From positions 1 to 29,638 of the IMG/VR virus record IMGVR_UViG_3300009537_000119: a stretch of 29,638 nucleotides of DNA; one strand, written 5' to 3'. Below are positions 22,945-29,638 of this stretch, piece after piece. Below the pieces are notes generated by a model. That model made no database searches. It worked only from the letters and a program-made list of their open reading frames with translations, and had not been told where the DNA came from. The DNA is from a virus. A program made the translations under genes and the position numbers. The first letter of the stretch is position 1, and each line of letters opens with the position of its first letter.

Positions 22945-22953
22945 ATTATAGCA
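22945..22953 (-). promoter_or_regulatory. Extended -10 box for the packaging operon
   Basis: TGCTATAAT on the minus strand is a perfect extended -10 (TGn-TATAAT). The TAA of the TATAAT is the stop codon of the DNA methyltransferase gene. No -35 match is seen at 16-18 bases. A start near 22938 would leave a roughly 90-base leader before the small terminase gene. Confidence 0.5.
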
Positions 22954-23710
22954 GGTTTTTTCTCTCATTAATTCTTGTTTCTGCATCTAAACTATGAACG
23001 AAATCAACCTCGAAACCAATATAATGTCTCTCTAGTTCTACACACGCTACCCCAGTAGTCCCCCCCCCCATAAATGGATCGAACACGAAATCGCCCACAC
23101 TAGAGAAACAGTCGATATAATATCTCGCTTCCGATAATCCCTGTTGCCATTTATGATGACTTTTTTCCAGACCGGTCCCCTTAAACAAATTATGAAACAT
23201 CGATCGAGATTTCGCCTTTGATCCTTTTGGGACATATACATTAATAAACTTCGCTCGGGCTAACATTTTTAGATTCCACAAAACAGAGGCGTTCCCCTGG
23301 GTGCTTACAACACAAAGAGTATAATGTTCGAGTTTTTTCCTCATCATGGCCATAATAAAATCCATCGAGGCAGACGGCGTATATACCAACAAAAAACCCT
23401 CGGGCTTAAGTAACCTTGCCGCCTCCCCTGCTAACCATTCATAAAGATACAAATATCTTTCCGGGTAAGGGGGATCCGTAAATATTAAATCAATGCTCCC
23501 AGACGGTATCTCTCTCGACAACTCTCTACAGTCTCCCGTCAATATCTGATTTCGGAATTTTCCGGGGATCCGGAGAGCAGTGTTTCTCTTTCTCTCAATC
23601 TCCCGCACACGTTTTCGGACATCAGACGCCTTAATCGTCGGGTCCGTTTGGTCTATTTGAATAGACGGGTTCGCCTTTACTCCTGTATCTCGTTCTTTTG
23701 TTCTACTCAT
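22946..23710 (-). CDS. DNA N4/N6 (amino) methyltransferase
   Basis: Read from the ATG at 23710 the protein has 254 residues. The catalytic motif IV TDPPYPE is at 78-84 and the SAM-binding motif I FDPFMGGGTTGVACVEL is at 210-225, followed by ERHYIGFEVD. This IV-then-I order is that of beta-type adenine-N6 or cytosine-N4 DNA methyltransferases. The target site cannot be read. The frame is open upstream to 24139, with an ATG at 24025 after a weak AGAAG site, which would add a membrane-like N-terminus. The 23710 ATG overlaps the stop of the 23707-24012 ORF as ATGA. The gene has fewer GATC sites than its neighbours, suggesting later acquisition. Confidence 0.85.
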   Translation of the reverse strand: MSRTKERDTGVKANPSIQIDQTDPTIKASDVRKRVREIERKRNTALRIPGKFRNQILTGDCRELSREIPSGSIDLIFTDPPYPERYLYLYEWLAGEAARLLKPEGFLLVYTPSASMDFIMAMMRKKLEHYTLCVVSTQGNASVLWNLKMLARAKFINVYVPKGSKAKSRSMFHNLFKGTGLEKSHHKWQQGLSEARYYIDCFSSVGDFVFDPFMGGGTTGVACVELERHYIGFEVDFVHSLDAETRINERKNLL

Positions 23711-24012
23711 GGCATTATCAGGTTTAAAGGTTCGTTTAGTGGGAGCGTAAGAGATAACGAGAATGCATCCAAGTAGTAATGAGAGAGCAAGGCCAAGGAG
23801 ACCCCAACCAACAGGACCGAGAGCATCATGCCATAGTTTACAGCCGTAGAGATTTTGTATCGGCCAGAGCGGGATTTTATTTTGAAGACCACAAATAATA
23901 TGGTCGAGGTCAACAAGCACCCCAACGAGCCCAAAATAGACGAAAATGCAAAATGCATCGATGAGTCTAAGAGAGCCCCTTTCAAAGTATGTAAAATTTC
24001 GAACGTCGTCAT
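23707..24012 (-). CDS. Small membrane protein in a segment open in two frames
   Basis: The 101-residue ORF starts at an ATG overlapping the nuclease gene stop (ATGA) with GGAG 7 bases upstream, and ends with a TGA overlapping an in-frame ATG of the methyltransferase, so translation could be coupled at both ends. It has two hydrophobic spans, near residues 22-44 (SILGSLGCLLTSTILFVVF) and 64-83 (MMLSVLLVGVSLALLSHYY). The other frame, continuous with the methyltransferase, is also membrane-like and carries LVGVLVDLDHII and KLWHDALGP, recalling membrane proteins with a DxDH motif. Which frame is used, or whether both are, is not settled. Confidence 0.45.
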   Translation of the reverse strand: MTTFEILHTLKGALLDSSMHFAFSSILGSLGCLLTSTILFVVFKIKSRSGRYKISTAVNYGMMLSVLLVGVSLALLSHYYLDAFSLSLTLPLNEPLNLIMP

Positions 24013-24707
24013 TTTTTTTCTCCATTAGTTTCTTCTTTTTGGTTAATAGCGATCCGAATATTATCGTCGAGTAGATAAAACTTAAAAGGCGTTTGGCTCT
24101 TGTCCGTGTAGCACCAACTCTCAAATTTAACAAGAGCATTTCTTAAACTATCTGATCCAGATCCGTTATAGTGCGTCTCTCCAATTCCTGCAACAATTTC
24201 TCGAGCAGTAGATCCGGGATTATTTGTAATGAATTGTTTAACCCGAATCATCGTTTCCTTATAAGGTGTCAAGTGGGCGCCCCCTTGAGATCCTGCCGGC
24301 GCAAACGTTTTATGGAGGCCTGTTAATTTCTTTTCCATCTCTTTTCCCCATAAGGTAAATTTTTCCTTAAATGGGGGAGATTCGATTTCCTCTACCCATC
24401 CGTAATCCATGACCTCTATAATCCCGACTTCGTAAAAATCGAGAGCGACTTCTCTCCAGCTGGCCGGACGAGGTCCTCGGGTTCCTTTCACGGCGACGGA
24501 TCGATAAGGAACCCGCCATTGATAAGCCTGATCCAGAACCGGGATCCCATACCCGATTTTTGTTTCAATAATCCAGAGATGCCCGTCTAAGAAAGTGACG
24601 ATATCAGCCACAGCGGATCCATAAAAAAACTGGACCTCCTGATAAACCTCGTGTCCGTTCTCTTTTAACCACGAAACGACATGCTCGGCGAGGTCGATTT
24701 CTTTCAT
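24009..24707 (-). CDS. PD-(D/E)XK nuclease-like protein with C-terminal winged helix
   Basis: From the ATG at 24707 (AGGAG about 5 bases upstream) the protein has 232 residues. An N-terminal helix (MKEIDLAEHVVSWLKENGHEV) precedes a restriction-endonuclease-like core: VADIVTFLDGHLWIIETKIG, with D35, E48 and K50 as the likely metal site, then LDQAYQWRVPYRSVAV. Residues about 155-215 look like a winged helix (MIRVKQFITNNPGSTAREIVAGIGETH, then DSLRNALVKFESWCYTD). It probably cuts or trims DNA. It is followed by a membrane ORF and a DNA methyltransferase, so a modification-linked role is possible. A longer form from 24746 would overlap the transglycosylase gene. Confidence 0.65.
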   Translation of the reverse strand: MKEIDLAEHVVSWLKENGHEVYQEVQFFYGSAVADIVTFLDGHLWIIETKIGYGIPVLDQAYQWRVPYRSVAVKGTRGPRPASWREVALDFYEVGIIEVMDYGWVEEIESPPFKEKFTLWGKEMEKKLTGLHKTFAPAGSQGGAHLTPYKETMIRVKQFITNNPGSTAREIVAGIGETHYNGSGSDSLRNALVKFESWCYTDKSQTPFKFYLLDDNIRIAINQKEETNGEKK

Positions 24708-24717
24708 AAGACTCCTT

Positions 24718-25962
24718 TTATTTTTTGTCGAGAACCTCGACCGCACTCCCCGGGATGTAATGTCCCGGAAAATATCTCATTTGGAAAAATGCCTGTCCTC
24801 CGTCGGCGATCATCCGGGTCGAGAATACATCCAGAACGGATCCTTTCGGGAGATCGATCCGGTCCTCGACCGAATGCCTCTCCAGGATCGGATATCCGTT
24901 TTTATTGTATCGAGTGATCGTGTATGTTGTTAGATCTTTTTTCAACACTCGGACCGAGAGCGTCTGAGCCTCTCCTGGTACTCCGAGGTATCCCAACATT
25001 TCGATCATTTCTGGTCGATGCAGAAAGAAAGGATCCTCAATATATCCGACCTCATTAAAATGATATTTCTCGAGAGCAGGCAACCAGCACGAATAGATTA
25101 ACTCGGCATAGGTCGGACCCCCGAACGATTTGCAGAGAGCAGATTCGAGAGACGTATATCCGCAGTTATACGCAGCCAGTCCGAGAAAGATCGGGTCATC
25201 GAAACGCTCTCGAGGCGTTAAGTAAAATAACGACATCGCATCGGCTCGATTTTTATCGAGGGGAGTTTCGTAATAATGTTGGATGGTTTGATTGAGGATG
25301 TTTATCCCAAGGCCGATATTTATCGCCGGATTCTTTAACATCGTCGCCGTGTATGTTTTGTTTCTCGGCGAGATCTGCATCAGACCGACCGTCGAAAACC
25401 CGTCGGAGGATACCAGAGACGGAGATCCTCCCGACTCTTGAGCGATCACAGCGAGAGGGAGCAGGACCGGGTCTGATAAATACAGGGGATTTCGAGAGAC
25501 CTCGAGAGCGTCCAGATTCGCAGTGAGACCACTCTTAACGGTTTTGAAATATCGATATACTCGAGCGAGTATCGCCTCGTTATAGCAGTCGAGATCGTCC
25601 TCGTCGTGAGATGCCATCACATCAAAAAACCTCGGAGGCAGGTCCGGCGTTTCTATCGGGTCCTGGATCTCGTCGGCGATCTCCGGCTCAGCGGAAATCT
25701 GTATCTCTGGTTTAAACAGAGGACCTCCGTCCGGGATGGTCCCTCGATATCCGAAACCAGATCCGGTCTCGAGAGTGGATCGGAGCAGAGCGATCTCGGC
25801 CTGCTCTCGGATCCTGGTCTGCTCAACTCCCCAGGCCATCGCATACCAGACGACCAGGAAAACAAAACTCATCCCGAGGATCAGGGGACCTCGTCTCTTA
25901 AAGAATGAGAGCGTTCTCTGCATGAGGTCCTCGTCACTTGCTTTCTGTTTTGTGGTTTTCAT
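24718..25962 (-). CDS. Membrane-anchored lytic transglycosylase (SLT fold)
   Basis: The 414-residue protein has a basic N-terminus, one membrane span at about 27-46 (LILGMSFVFLVVWYAMAWGV), a linker, then a soluble lytic transglycosylase domain: catalytic glutamate in AVIAQESGGSP (E176), VGLMQISP at 192-199 and LGLAAYNCGYT at 260-270. It would cleave peptidoglycan between MurNAc and GlcNAc from the outer side of the inner membrane. The C-terminal 100 residues (from about 315) form a small beta domain. The ATG follows AAGGAG, immediately after a 49-residue membrane protein gene. It may serve as endolysin or in DNA entry. Confidence 0.85.
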   Translation of the reverse strand: MKTTKQKASDEDLMQRTLSFFKRRGPLILGMSFVFLVVWYAMAWGVEQTRIREQAEIALLRSTLETGSGFGYRGTIPDGGPLFKPEIQISAEPEIADEIQDPIETPDLPPRFFDVMASHDEDDLDCYNEAILARVYRYFKTVKSGLTANLDALEVSRNPLYLSDPVLLPLAVIAQESGGSPSLVSSDGFSTVGLMQISPRNKTYTATMLKNPAINIGLGINILNQTIQHYYETPLDKNRADAMSLFYLTPRERFDDPIFLGLAAYNCGYTSLESALCKSFGGPTYAELIYSCWLPALEKYHFNEVGYIEDPFFLHRPEMIEMLGYLGVPGEAQTLSVRVLKKDLTTYTITRYNKNGYPILERHSVEDRIDLPKGSVLDVFSTRMIADGGQAFFQMRYFPGHYIPGSAVEVLDKK

Positions 25963-26922: not shown

Positions 26923-27335
26923 TTTTTCGGTACCTCGGCTCCCATCAGCAGGACCGGGACGATCTTACAGTCCAGATTTCCAAAAAATGCAGGATAGGAT
27001 CTCGCTCTCGGATGCCTGCTTTCCTTGATCGGTTTGTATATGAGCATACCCTCTCGGACAGTGATCCGGCCAGAGACCCGAGCATTTTTTATCCTGCCGG
27101 CGATCTGATATTTTCCGGTTTGGTGATCGACCCTGGATAATAATTGTTGTTTGAACCTTTCCTCTCTGAGGACCTCGATCTCCTCCGTCCTTAATGTGAT
27201 CAGGTCCTCTCGTGCCTGGAGGAAAACGTCGGTCCGGGGAGACCAGTTTTTAAAATATGCGAGATCCTTTAACTTGTGCATTATGGCCTGATTGATTTCA
27301 ATGAGCGTCATCGTCGTTATTTCTTTCTCGGTCAT
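26919..27335 (-). CDS. Unknown protein of the replication region
   Basis: The 138-residue protein has a helical N-terminal half (LIEINQAIMHKLKDLAYF, DVFLQAREDLITLRTEEIEVLREERFKQQLLSRV) and a more beta-like C-terminal half (KYQIAGRIKNARVSGRITVREGMLIYKPI, CKIVPVLLMGAEV). GAGGAG lies 8 bases before the ATG. It stands between the helicase loader and the methyltransferase remnant, so a part in phage DNA metabolism is plausible. I do not recognise the family. Confidence 0.65.
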   Translation of the reverse strand: MTEKEITTMTLIEINQAIMHKLKDLAYFKNWSPRTDVFLQAREDLITLRTEEIEVLREERFKQQLLSRVDHQTGKYQIAGRIKNARVSGRITVREGMLIYKPIKESRHPRARSYPAFFGNLDCKIVPVLLMGAEVPKN

Positions 27336-27351
27336 CGTTTTTCTCCTCTCG

Positions 27352-28155
27352 TTAAAATAACATTCCCGGCCGGAGATCTCCGGCCTCCATTTTCAAAACT
27401 TTAAATCTCCCGTCGTGGATCCTGCTTGCGAAATAAGGATCGAATGTTTTCGGGTCCTGGTTCGAGGTCATGATCGTGATCGTCTCTTGATTGAGTGCCG
27501 CCTGGTATCGGCCATCGAGTAGGAGAAATTGTCTCTCCTTGACATAGGCCGTCGCATTTACCCGATCGACCTCATCCAGGACAAGGAGTTTCGCATTTTT
27601 CCAAACCTCGAGCCGGCGATAACTTTCGGCAGACGGCCGGTCCGTATCGAATGCCATTCTCAGATTTTCGATGACTTGAGCCATCGTCGAATAAATCGCA
27701 GGTTTTCCCGACTTGATATATTCAGCGACCGCAGTTTTTAAGAGGACCGTTTTCGCATTCCCCGGATCTCCCCAGAGAAAAACCCAACCGAAACCGGCCT
27801 CAATAACTTTTCGGATCTCCTCCAGGACAAGGAAAGCGTTTCCGTCGTCGAGGATTTTCTCCCATCCGAGATCCGAGATCTCGTTCGGCAGCAGGCCCGA
27901 TCCGGAGATCTTTACTCGTCGAGCCAAATTCGGACAGGTCCCCCACCTATCGACCAAAACCGGCCGTCCGAGGAAATCTGTCTCCTCGACCTGGATCGAA
28001 GATACTCCCTCTCCTTGGCAGATCTCGCAGTCCGGATCGCATTTCGACCGGCCGCCGAGTTCGATCGTGTTATTCGATCGGATCATCGGTCTGACTTTCA
28101 TTCGCTCTTTCAACTCCTGGGATAATCGAGCGACATTCTGTTTATCGTTTTTCAT
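27352..28155 (-). CDS. DnaC/DnaI-like helicase loader ATPase
   Basis: The 267-residue protein has an N-terminal Cys cluster (C39, C43, C46 in CDPDCEICQGEG, and C74), as in DnaI/DnaC loaders, followed by an AAA+ core: Walker A GDPGNAKT at 129-136 (Ala instead of the usual Gly before Lys), a YSTMAQVIENLRMAFD helix, Walker B LLVLDEVDR at 190-198, sensor MTSNQDP and ASRIHDG with a likely arginine finger. It would load the host replicative helicase at the phage origin. Its ATG overlaps the stop of the initiator gene (ATGA) with GAGGAG upstream, the O-P order of lambda-like phages. Confidence 0.85.
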   Translation of the reverse strand: MKNDKQNVARLSQELKERMKVRPMIRSNNTIELGGRSKCDPDCEICQGEGVSSIQVEETDFLGRPVLVDRWGTCPNLARRVKISGSGLLPNEISDLGWEKILDDGNAFLVLEEIRKVIEAGFGWVFLWGDPGNAKTVLLKTAVAEYIKSGKPAIYSTMAQVIENLRMAFDTDRPSAESYRRLEVWKNAKLLVLDEVDRVNATAYVKERQFLLLDGRYQAALNQETITIMTSNQDPKTFDPYFASRIHDGRFKVLKMEAGDLRPGMLF

Positions 28156-29003
28156 TTTCTTTCTCCTCGTTTCGCTTTCGCTTTTTTGACCCTCTCCTGG
28201 GCATCTGCTTTTTTATCGGCGAACTCCTGCTCCCGAGATTTCCCAGACGCCGGCAGAAACCTCGGAAATGAATTAAGCAAGGACCTCGGGGAGGTTATAT
28301 CGAAATCGACTTTCCAAACGATCGCCGAGATCGTCGCCATCGTCAGATCGATATCCTGACCGGCAATGATCCACATATCCCGCAGCGGAGCGACCCAGGA
28401 GGCGCCAAACGAGCGAGCTCCGGAGTCTGACATATTCTCGAAATCAGGCGTCTTGATTTTAGTCTCGGCCGAAAAATGAGCATATAGTTTCTCGATGTCT
28501 GCTTTCGGGATCTTGATTTTCTTTGGAGTTGATTTTTTCCGATGGGGAGAATCCCCATTAAAAGAATCTTTGCTCTTTATTTCTTTCTTAACTTCTTTCT
28601 TCGTGTTGCTTAAAGCAACAGTAGTGTCGTCTAAAGCAACAGCACTGTTGTTTAAAGCAACACCGGTGTTGTCGAAAGCAACAGCAGATAATTCTAATCC
28701 TGCCTTTTTTGTCGGTCTATATTTGTGGGGTCTGTTTCTTACCTCTGGCGTTAGATCTTTTAGATATTTGTTTTTCACTAATAATTGAATATGCCTGTTC
28801 ACTGTTGAGCGATCAACCCTGAGCCAATCGGCTATCGATGTCTGAGACGCCGAGCAGTAACCTTGTTTGCCCTGAGAATATCGCCAAACCCGTCCATAGA
28901 CGGCAGCAGTCATCAGCCCGTATTTTTCAACTATGGTATCAAGGCAGGGAGTGAAGTTTTTTATTTTCACTTTTCTAAATATTTCAAGCAGGCAGCAACT
29001 CAA
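28152..29003 (-). CDS. Winged-helix replication initiator (O-like) carrying origin repeats
   Basis: The 283-residue protein has an N-terminal winged helix (FTPCLDTIVEKYGLMTAAVYGRVWRYSQ, SQTSIADWLRVDRSTVNRHIQLLVKNKYL at about 53-81), a middle section of four 7-residue repeats (A/VALxxx at about 107-134) encoded by 21-bp iterons, a lysine-rich linker, and a C-terminal domain that probably contacts the helicase loader made by the next gene. It matches the build of phage O/DnaD-type initiators. The TTG at 29003 overlaps the previous stop; a GTG at 28970 is an alternative start. The 5' part is less GATC-rich than the 3' half, hinting at a mosaic gene. Confidence 0.75.
   Translation of the reverse strand: MSCCLLEIFRKVKIKNFTPCLDTIVEKYGLMTAAVYGRVWRYSQGKQGYCSASQTSIADWLRVDRSTVNRHIQLLVKNKYLKDLTPEVRNRPHKYRPTKKAGLELSAVAFDNTGVALNNSAVALDDTTVALSNTKKEVKKEIKSKDSFNGDSPHRKKSTPKKIKIPKADIEKLYAHFSAETKIKTPDFENMSDSGARSFGASWVAPLRDMWIIAGQDIDLTMATISAIVWKVDFDITSPRSLLNSFPRFLPASGKSREQEFADKKADAQERVKKAKAKRGERK
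28561..28604. other. AT-rich, strand-biased tract beside the iterons (candidate unwinding element)
   Basis: By my count 12 of 44 bases are G or C. The plus strand is nearly all pyrimidine in its right part (CTTTATTTCTTTCTTAAC and on), coding the lysine-rich linker of the initiator on the other strand. It touches iteron 1. In lambda an AT-rich segment next to the iterons in gene O is where the origin opens. Confidence 0.6.
28605..28682. repeat. Four 21-bp iterons: candidate replication origin
   Basis: Imperfectly palindromic 15-base cores lie at 28605-28619 (GTTGCTTAAAGCAAC, itself nearly self-complementary), 28626-28640, 28647-28661 and 28668-28682, spaced by exactly 21 bp. All share AAAGCAAC on one side and GTYGT or GTTGC on the other. 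Six-base spacers (AGTAGT, AGCACT, ACCGGT) separate them. The length is a multiple of three, so the host gene reads through as a 7-residue repeat. Symmetric repeats inside an initiator gene, next to an AT-rich tract, match the lambda ori plan. Confidence 0.75.
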
Positions 29004-29407
29004 TCTGTTGGCGGTTCATCAAGAAGGTTCCCTATAATACATTCTCCATAATGTCCATCTGGTTTCTTGTATCCGCACCAGGGGCAAAATGTCCATTTGG
29101 CGGCATAGGCATTATGTAATTCCAAATCGGCAATAAAATCTGTGTAATCAATGTATTCAATTTGTCTTAGACCGATCTTCAATTGTTCGTTCAAAGCCAG
29201 CGCCTCATCCAGGGCTTGCAGGAGGCGTATAACCACGCCAAAATTCATGACATCATGCGTATCAAATTCCCAGGGCTTTACCTTCATCGCCCGTTCCCCT
29301 ATCTCCTGCGCCCAATCTGGTAAGTGTTTGTATTTAGTCATTTTGCCTCCGGGGGGATCTCGTTCCGCTATCTCCTGCGCCCATTCGAAGTGTTTGTATT
29401 TAGTCAC
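29000..29407 (-). CDS. Unknown early protein with CxxC motif and duplicated N-terminus
   Basis: Starting at GTG 29407 (AGGAGG about 5 bases upstream) the protein has 135 residues. The first 22 residues (MTKYKHFEWAQEIAERDPPG) are repeated with changes at 23-40 (MTKYKHLPDWAQEIGERAM). A second ATG at 29341, with GGAGG 4 bases upstream, starts the second copy and may be the original start. The centre is helical (VVIRLLQALDEALALNEQLKIGL). The C-terminus has WTFCPWCGYKKPDGHYGECIIGNL, a likely zinc-binding knuckle. Its stop overlaps the initiator TTG. Function is unknown. Confidence 0.7.
   Translation of the reverse strand: MTKYKHFEWAQEIAERDPPGGKMTKYKHLPDWAQEIGERAMKVKPWEFDTHDVMNFGVVIRLLQALDEALALNEQLKIGLRQIEYIDYTDFIADLELHNAYAAKWTFCPWCGYKKPDGHYGECIIGNLLDEPPTD
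29297..29406. repeat. 66-bp in-frame tandem duplication
   Basis: The stretches ending TTTGTATTTAGTCA at 29340 and 29406 are copies offset by 66 bp and share TATCTCCTGCGCCCA. The copies differ by several substitutions and a small length change near ATCTGGT/TTCGAAG. The unit carries a ribosome binding site and start codon as well as coding sequence. Confidence 0.75.
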
Positions 29408-29538
29408 GCTATCCTCCTTGGTATCAGAAGAGCAACAATAACTACCAGCCCACCGATATATCCATCTGGGATAATTTCAAAAACTGACAACCAGGCACCG
29501 ATGAACATTATTAAAATATCTGATAATTGTATCCTCAT
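29404..29538 (-). CDS. 44-residue double-span membrane protein
   Basis: MRIQLSDILIMFIGAWLSVF is followed by EIIPDGYIGGLVVIVALLIPRRIA: two hydrophobic segments with a short polar turn. AGGAG lies 9 bases before the ATG, and the TGA overlaps the next gene's GTG (GTGA). Small membrane proteins of this kind occur in phage early regions, sometimes for exclusion or host membrane effects; no family is recognised. Confidence 0.6.
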   Translation of the reverse strand: MRIQLSDILIMFIGAWLSVFEIIPDGYIGGLVVIVALLIPRRIA

Positions 29539-29566
29539 TTTTAGTCTCTCCTAATATTCTGTCCAA

Positions 29567-29638
29567 TCAGGGAGTGTGGCGGGCTTTGAATGTACACTGG
29601 CAAACATCCTTAGAGACTTCAACCGCTAGGCTACTAGC
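29567..29638 (-). CDS. C-terminal end of an unknown gene (partial)
   Basis: A frame open at the window edge reads ASSLAVEVSKDVCQCTFKAR and ends HTP before TGA at 29569-29567, about 30 bases before the next gene's start. It keeps the strand and spacing of the operon. The 23 residues are too few to identify. Confidence 0.4.
   Translation of the reverse strand, partial: ASSLAVEVSKDVCQCTFKARHTP

What the first reader, a model, noticed from the sequence alone, without database searches (positions are those of the whole stretch)
28561..28682. Lambda-style replication origin inside the initiator gene
Four near-palindromic 15-base cores at exact 21-bp spacing lie within the initiator gene and directly adjoin a 27% G+C, strand-biased tract. 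The spacing keeps the reading frame, so the same DNA encodes a 7-residue repeat. The next gene is a DnaC/DnaI-like loader. This copies the architecture of lambda O-ori-P with unrelated sequence.
Basis: partly seen in the sequence, partly recalled or inferred. Interest (0 to 1): 0.78.

Follow-up and report, generated by a model that had tools for sequence, protein, structure and literature searches.

The report
Phage replication origin inside initiator gene
The phage appears to carry its DNA-replication start site inside the gene for the protein that recognises it, as phage lambda does, and distant relatives keep this layout while changing the actual DNA letters, which makes it a well-supported but not new kind of origin.

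Summary
Four 17-bp, near-palindromic repeats (TGTTGCTTTAAGCAACA; 28604-28683) sit 21 bp apart inside a winged-helix initiator gene. They directly adjoin a 45-bp tract of 27% G+C, and the next gene is a DnaC-like helicase loader. With the peptide held fixed, synonymous-codon shuffles never reach the observed score (0/3000, z=12.9), and 32 other window genes show nothing similar. Relatives settle what is selected. In genes upstream of the same loader family, and in many other HTH_36 genes of Chloroflexota genomes, the iteron sequence changes completely. The layout stays: post-wHTH linker, mostly 20-24 or 32-36 bp steps (two or three helical turns), and AT-rich DNA on the 3' side. About half of all steps are out of frame, so DNA rather than a peptide repeat is maintained. 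In three related prophages the two longest stretches without synonymous change are the iterons and the AT block. Best reading: a theta-type origin of the lambda O / SPP1 gp38 / TP901-1 kind, bound by the gene's own product. No binding or origin mapping was possible. New member of a known kind; the conserved geometry with swapped sequence is the interesting part.

The parts
28152..29003 (-). Initiator gene, up to 283 aa (TTG start at 29003; a GTG at codon 12 is also possible)
   Evidence: ORF; HTH_36 E=5e-7; weak PHROG replication-initiation matches, best 1e-5
28761..28904 (-). Winged helix-turn-helix DNA-binding domain (residues 34-81)
   Evidence: HTH_36 match positions
28667..28683 (-). Iteron 1, TGTTGCTTTCGACAACA
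28646..28662 (-). Iteron 2, TGTTGCTTTAAACAACA
28625..28641 (-). Iteron 3, TGTTGCTTTAGACGACA
28604..28620 (-). Iteron 4, TGTTGCTTTAAGCAACA, perfect 17-bp dyad next to the AT tract
28559..28603 (-). AT-rich, purine-biased tract (27% G+C), probable DNA-unwinding element
   Evidence: weakest-melting 1% of the gene
28542..28558 (.). G+C-rich 17-bp dyad ATGGGGAGAATCCCCAT after the AT tract; tentative third element
   Evidence: best hairpin of the gene, p=0.01; similar element in lambda and L041, weak or absent in other relatives
27352..28155 (-). AAA+ DnaC-like helicase loader, overlapping the initiator stop by 4 bp
   Evidence: phrog_50 E=1e-17; family alignment A5

Best explanation
This is a theta-type phage replication origin embedded in the coding sequence of its own initiator. 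Most likely the wHTH domain binds the 17-bp dyads as dimers, four dimers on the same face of the helix two turns apart, forming an O-some-like complex. This strains and opens the adjoining AT-rich purine/pyrimidine tract, and the loader encoded by the next gene, recruited by the initiator, places the host DnaB helicase on the opened strand. Shown here: the repeats, dyads and AT tract; their maintenance as DNA rather than peptide; the conserved layout; the linked loader gene. Inferred: binding, dimerisation, unwinding, helicase loading and actual initiation at this place.
For: Window test: 0/3000 synonymous shuffles, z=12.9, and no signal in 32 other genes. Loader-family relatives with post-wHTH iterons of unrelated sequence: L006 AGTCCAGCCAGTGGACT at 33/23/22 bp in different frames; L029 GGTGCCAAAATGGCACC at 34/22/22 bp in three frames; L041 (Ornatilinea apprima) TTCACCAGGTGAA three times at 21 bp; L049 TCAATTATTGA six times. 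The wider HTH_36 survey in Chloroflexota gives 12 of 24 genes with z>5. Spacings cluster at 20-24 and 32-36 bp, 35/71 not multiples of 3, helical-phase R=0.57 at 11 bp. The weakest-melting 2% of the gene lies within 60 bp 3' of the iterons in 14/21 genes, against 13.7% for random positions and 1/21 on the 5' side. In L045/L046/L048, synonymous identity is 39/39 in the iteron block against 324/578 elsewhere, and the two longest synonymously unchanged runs are the iterons (15 columns, permutation p=0.003) and the AT block (10 columns). Lambda O as positive control gives T=55 and the same layout. Literature: lambda, SPP1 and lactococcal phage origins lie inside the initiator gene.
Against: No binding, unwinding or marker-frequency data could be obtained. 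The window's own initiator has no close relative in the collections searched, so selection on this exact copy cannot be measured by comparison. Four genes of the survey show no detectable in-gene or nearby iterons, three of them beside the same loader family (L028, L047, L074) and one other (L033). The AT tract of the window also encodes lysines, which alone would make it AT-rich. In-gene iterons could in principle serve autoregulation.
Confidence: 0.88

Rival explanations
1. A repeated linker peptide (7-residue repeat) is the selected feature and the DNA repeat is a by-product.
For: All four copies of the window are in one frame and encode VA-rich heptads; L041 and L049 are also in frame.
Against: The peptide does not force the DNA repeat (0/3000 synonymous shuffles). 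In L006, L029, L084, L083, L093, L102 and L106 the repeats run through different frames and encode unrelated peptides. Synonymous sites are frozen in the L045/46/48 iterons.
Confidence: 0.04
2. The dyads are operators through which the initiator regulates transcription of its own operon, with no origin function.
For: wHTH proteins often bind dyad operators as dimers; replication initiators are often autoregulated (general knowledge).
Against: The sites lie about 320 bp inside the gene, four or more in helical phase, usually beside an AT-rich tract on the loader side; no copy lies upstream of the gene; same layout as lambda, where the origin function is proven.
Confidence: 0.05
3. The repeats are a partition or incompatibility site (centromere-like iterons).
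For: A ParB-like ORF (by reading of its sequence) follows the loader in L006 and the iteron gene in L102.
Against: No ParA/ParB gene was recognised among the window genes scanned near the repeats; the AT tract beside the iterons is not explained.
Confidence: 0.03

Closest known systems
Phage lambda O gene / ori-lambda / P
   Same: Four dyad iterons in the middle of the initiator gene, AT-rich purine-biased tract on the 3' side, further dyad beyond it, loader gene next; same score in the same test (PMC6022878, PMC7466680)
   Different: No Phage_rep_O domain in the window protein, unrelated iteron sequence, AAA+ DnaC-type loader instead of lambda P; spacing 21/21/21 against 20/24/23
SPP1 gene 38 / oriL with loader gp39
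   Same: Repeats plus AT-rich DUE within the initiator gene, loader gp39 (PMC6316719)
   Different: SPP1 has a second origin, oriR; sequence relationship was not tested
Lactococcal P335 phages TP901-1 ORF13, Tuc2009 ORF16, r1t ORF11/12
   Same: Origin repeats within the replisome-organizer gene; r1t has a DnaC-like loader next to it (PMC8965321)
   Different: Different initiator and different hosts; no sequence match found in phages
Prophage in Ornatilinea apprima (L041, NZ_LGCL01000039) and IMG/VR L006, L029
   Same: Same loader family, wHTH initiator, palindromic iterons in the same linker, AT repeats next
   Different: Iteron sequence unrelated in each; no paper describing them was found in the library searched

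Membership tests
Initiator-gene-embedded phage origin (iterons + DUE + loader module) | Repeated binding sites inside the initiator coding sequence | tested here: met
   (repeats; that they are binding sites is inferred)
Initiator-gene-embedded phage origin (iterons + DUE + loader module) | AT-rich unwinding tract directly beside the repeats | tested here: met
Initiator-gene-embedded phage origin (iterons + DUE + loader module) | DNA-binding domain in the initiator and helicase loader in the adjacent gene | tested here: met
   HTH_36; phrog_50 loader
Initiator-gene-embedded phage origin (iterons + DUE + loader module) | Initiator binds the repeats and replication starts there | not testable with these tools
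   needs binding assay and marker frequency or plasmid assay
Lambda O/P family proper | Phage_rep_O (PF04492) N-terminal domain | tested here: not met
   HTH_36 instead; lambda O itself scores 6e-36
Lambda O/P family proper | O-like protein in remote clustering | tested here: inconclusive
   weak phrog_345 'O-like' match, E=7e-4
Lambda O/P family proper | Lambda P-type loader downstream | tested here: not met
   AAA+ DnaC/IstB-type loader

The most novel reading that the evidence does not exclude
In wHTH (HTH_36) initiators of Chloroflexota phages and elsewhere, the linker is a standing slot for a self-specific origin. The dyad sequence turns over together with the recognition helix, while copy phasing (two or three helical turns) and the position of the unwinding tract stay fixed, so the gene is a self-contained, swappable origin-plus-initiator cassette in front of a conserved loader. 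Support: iteron similarity follows wHTH similarity (Mantel r=0.33, p=0.0002, n=19, not corrected for shared descent).
Probability: 0.4. Interest if true: 0.55.

Novelty: new member of a known kind. Interest (0 to 1): 0.42.

Why it matters
It gives a testable origin for an uncultured phage group (probable Anaerolineae/Chloroflexota hosts) and a simple sequence test (synonymous-shuffle iteron score) that detects lambda's origin and a dozen new candidates in unannotated genomes. If wHTH and iterons really turn over together, the set is a natural table of recognition helices against DNA targets, each pair encoded in one gene.

Tried and rejected
Close relatives of the window initiator: none in phage records, IMG/VR or genome contigs, and no second contig with the same iteron pair. 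The TerL route and the loader-family route were used instead. AlphaFold of the initiator with 5 sequences: mean pLDDT 37, unusable, so no fold search was run. The third element (G+C dyad after the AT tract): significant only in the window, L041 and lambda, marginal in L006 and L004, absent elsewhere; kept as tentative. L028, L047, L074 and L033: no iterons in or near the gene. Promoter and terminator scans and GC skew for origin mapping were not pursued because the record is a 29.6-kb fragment; cumulative skew falls through 27000-29600 without a clear turn.

Full report
WHAT WAS CHECKED. The window is a 29,638-bp IMG/VR virus record. The finding lies in the ORF 28152-29003 on the minus strand. 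Reading that strand, four 17-bp units follow the DNA-binding domain: TGTTGCTTTCGACAACA, TGTTGCTTTAAACAACA, TGTTGCTTTAGACGACA and TGTTGCTTTAAGCAACA, start to start 21 bp. The last is a perfect dyad (8/8), the others 5-7 of 8, with the outer TGTTG/CAACA arms nearly invariant. Directly 3' comes a 45-bp tract of 27% G+C, purine-biased on the coding strand, then a G+C-rich 17-bp dyad, then the C-terminal part and, overlapping by 4 bp, the next gene. The initiator has an HTH_36 domain (E=5e-7, above cut-off) and weak matches to PHROG replication-initiation families; the next gene is a DnaC-like loader (phrog_50, 1e-17).

CHANCE AND CODING. A score combining repeat identity and dyad symmetry was compared with shuffles that permute synonymous codons and so keep the peptide. 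The window initiator scores 64.8 against 14.1 +- 3.9; none of 3000 shuffles reached it. None of 32 other genes in the window exceeds z=2.3. The peptide repeat therefore does not explain the DNA repeat. Lambda O, run as a positive control, scores 55.3 against 11.3 +- 2.9 and the score recovers its four annotated iterons.

RELATIVES. The window initiator itself has no detectable close relative. Relatives were reached through the large terminase and the loader. L006 (66% terminase identity) has a loader 32% identical and, before it, a wHTH gene with four AGTCCAGCCAGTGGACT-like copies at 33, 23 and 22 bp. The loader alignment then gave L028, L029, L041 in Ornatilinea apprima and L045-L049 and L074 in Chloroflexota genomes. 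Iterons: L029 GGTGCCAAAATGGCACC at 34/22/22 bp in three reading frames; L041 TTCACCAGGTGAA three times at 21 bp; L049 TCAATTATTGA six times; L045/46/48 TGAAAAnnTTTCA pairs; L004 (terminase relative) AAAGAATCAGA at 21/22 bp. L028, L047 and L074 gave no signal, nor did L033. The sequences and encoded peptides are unrelated; the position and geometry are kept.

WIDER SURVEY. Of 24 HTH_36 genes examined from Chloroflexota genomes, 12 have z>5 in the same test. This count includes L087, which is the Ornatilinea gene L041 again. Among 71 neighbouring spacings from 21 independent genes, including lambda and some with weaker scores, values cluster at 20-24 and 32-36 bp, 35 of 71 are not multiples of three, and the helical-phase vector is R=0.57 at 11 bp. 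The weakest-melting 2% of the gene lies within 60 bp on the 3' side of the iterons in 14 of 21 genes, against 13.7% for random placements and 1 of 21 on the 5' side. The layout iterons, then unwinding tract, is thus directional, as in lambda.

SELECTION ON SYNONYMOUS SITES. The three prophage initiators L045, L046 and L048 differ enough for a test. Codon identity at conserved residues is 39/39 in the iteron block and 324/578 elsewhere. Without choosing blocks beforehand, the longest run of synonymously unchanged columns (15, permutation p=0.003) is the iteron block and the second (10) is the AT block. This is direct evidence, in relatives, that both parts are kept as DNA.

MECHANISM. [quoted passage not shown] PMC7466680). 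SPP1 gp38 binds direct repeats at oriL within gene 38 with loader gp39 (PMC6316719). TP901-1 and Tuc2009 do the same, and r1t pairs such a gene with a DnaC-like loader (PMC8965321). By analogy the window's wHTH should bind the four dyads on one face of the helix, open the AT tract and hand over to the loader and host DnaB. Every step after the anatomy is inference.

CO-VARIATION. Iteron similarity follows wHTH similarity across 19 genes (Mantel r=0.33, p=0.0002). The strongest pair, L041 and L105, shares TTCACCAGGTGAA with wHTHs 53% identical; the next, L093 and L096, also 53%. Shared descent was not removed, and both members of the first pair use the same codon register, so this is consistent with co-evolution but is not proof.

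VERDICT. A convincing in-gene phage origin by sequence, of a long-known kind, in a sequence family where no description was found in the papers searched. The AlphaFold model was too poor to use. A third, hairpin-like element after the AT tract is present in the window, L041 and lambda but not general.

Noticed in passing
window 29292-29406: Imperfect tandem duplication (CGTTCCnCTATCTCCTGCGCCCA 69 bp apart, AAGTGTTTGTATTTAGTCA 66 bp apart) at the start of the small gene upstream of the initiator, encoding MTKYKHxxWAQEI(A/G)ER twice.
   Followed up: no
L105 and L041: Two initiators from different Chloroflexota genomes share the identical 13-bp dyad TTCACCAGGTGAA, with wHTH domains 53% identical.
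   Followed up: partly
L083, L084, L093, L096, L101, L102, L105, L106, L108, L109: HTH_36 genes of Chloroflexota genomes carry strong in-gene iterons, several running through all reading frames; L084 and L096 have a DnaC-like gene next, L102 a ParB-like gene (by reading of the sequence).
   Followed up: partly
L041, L045-L049, L074 against window 27352-28155: The loader family was found in Anaerolineae/Chloroflexota genomes, which suggests a Chloroflexota host for this phage; other phyla were only covered by one pattern-limited scan.
   Followed up: partly
L049:599-1486: A weak Phage_rep_O-like initiator (PF04492, E=2e-4, below the curated cut-off) sits in front of the same loader family that elsewhere follows HTH_36 initiators, a sign of module exchange.
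   Followed up: no
window 22946-24139: N6/N4 DNA methyltransferase domain (residues 216-378) behind a long N-terminal stretch rich in hydrophobic segments, overlapping the gene at 24009-24746 (phrog_12193).
   Followed up: no
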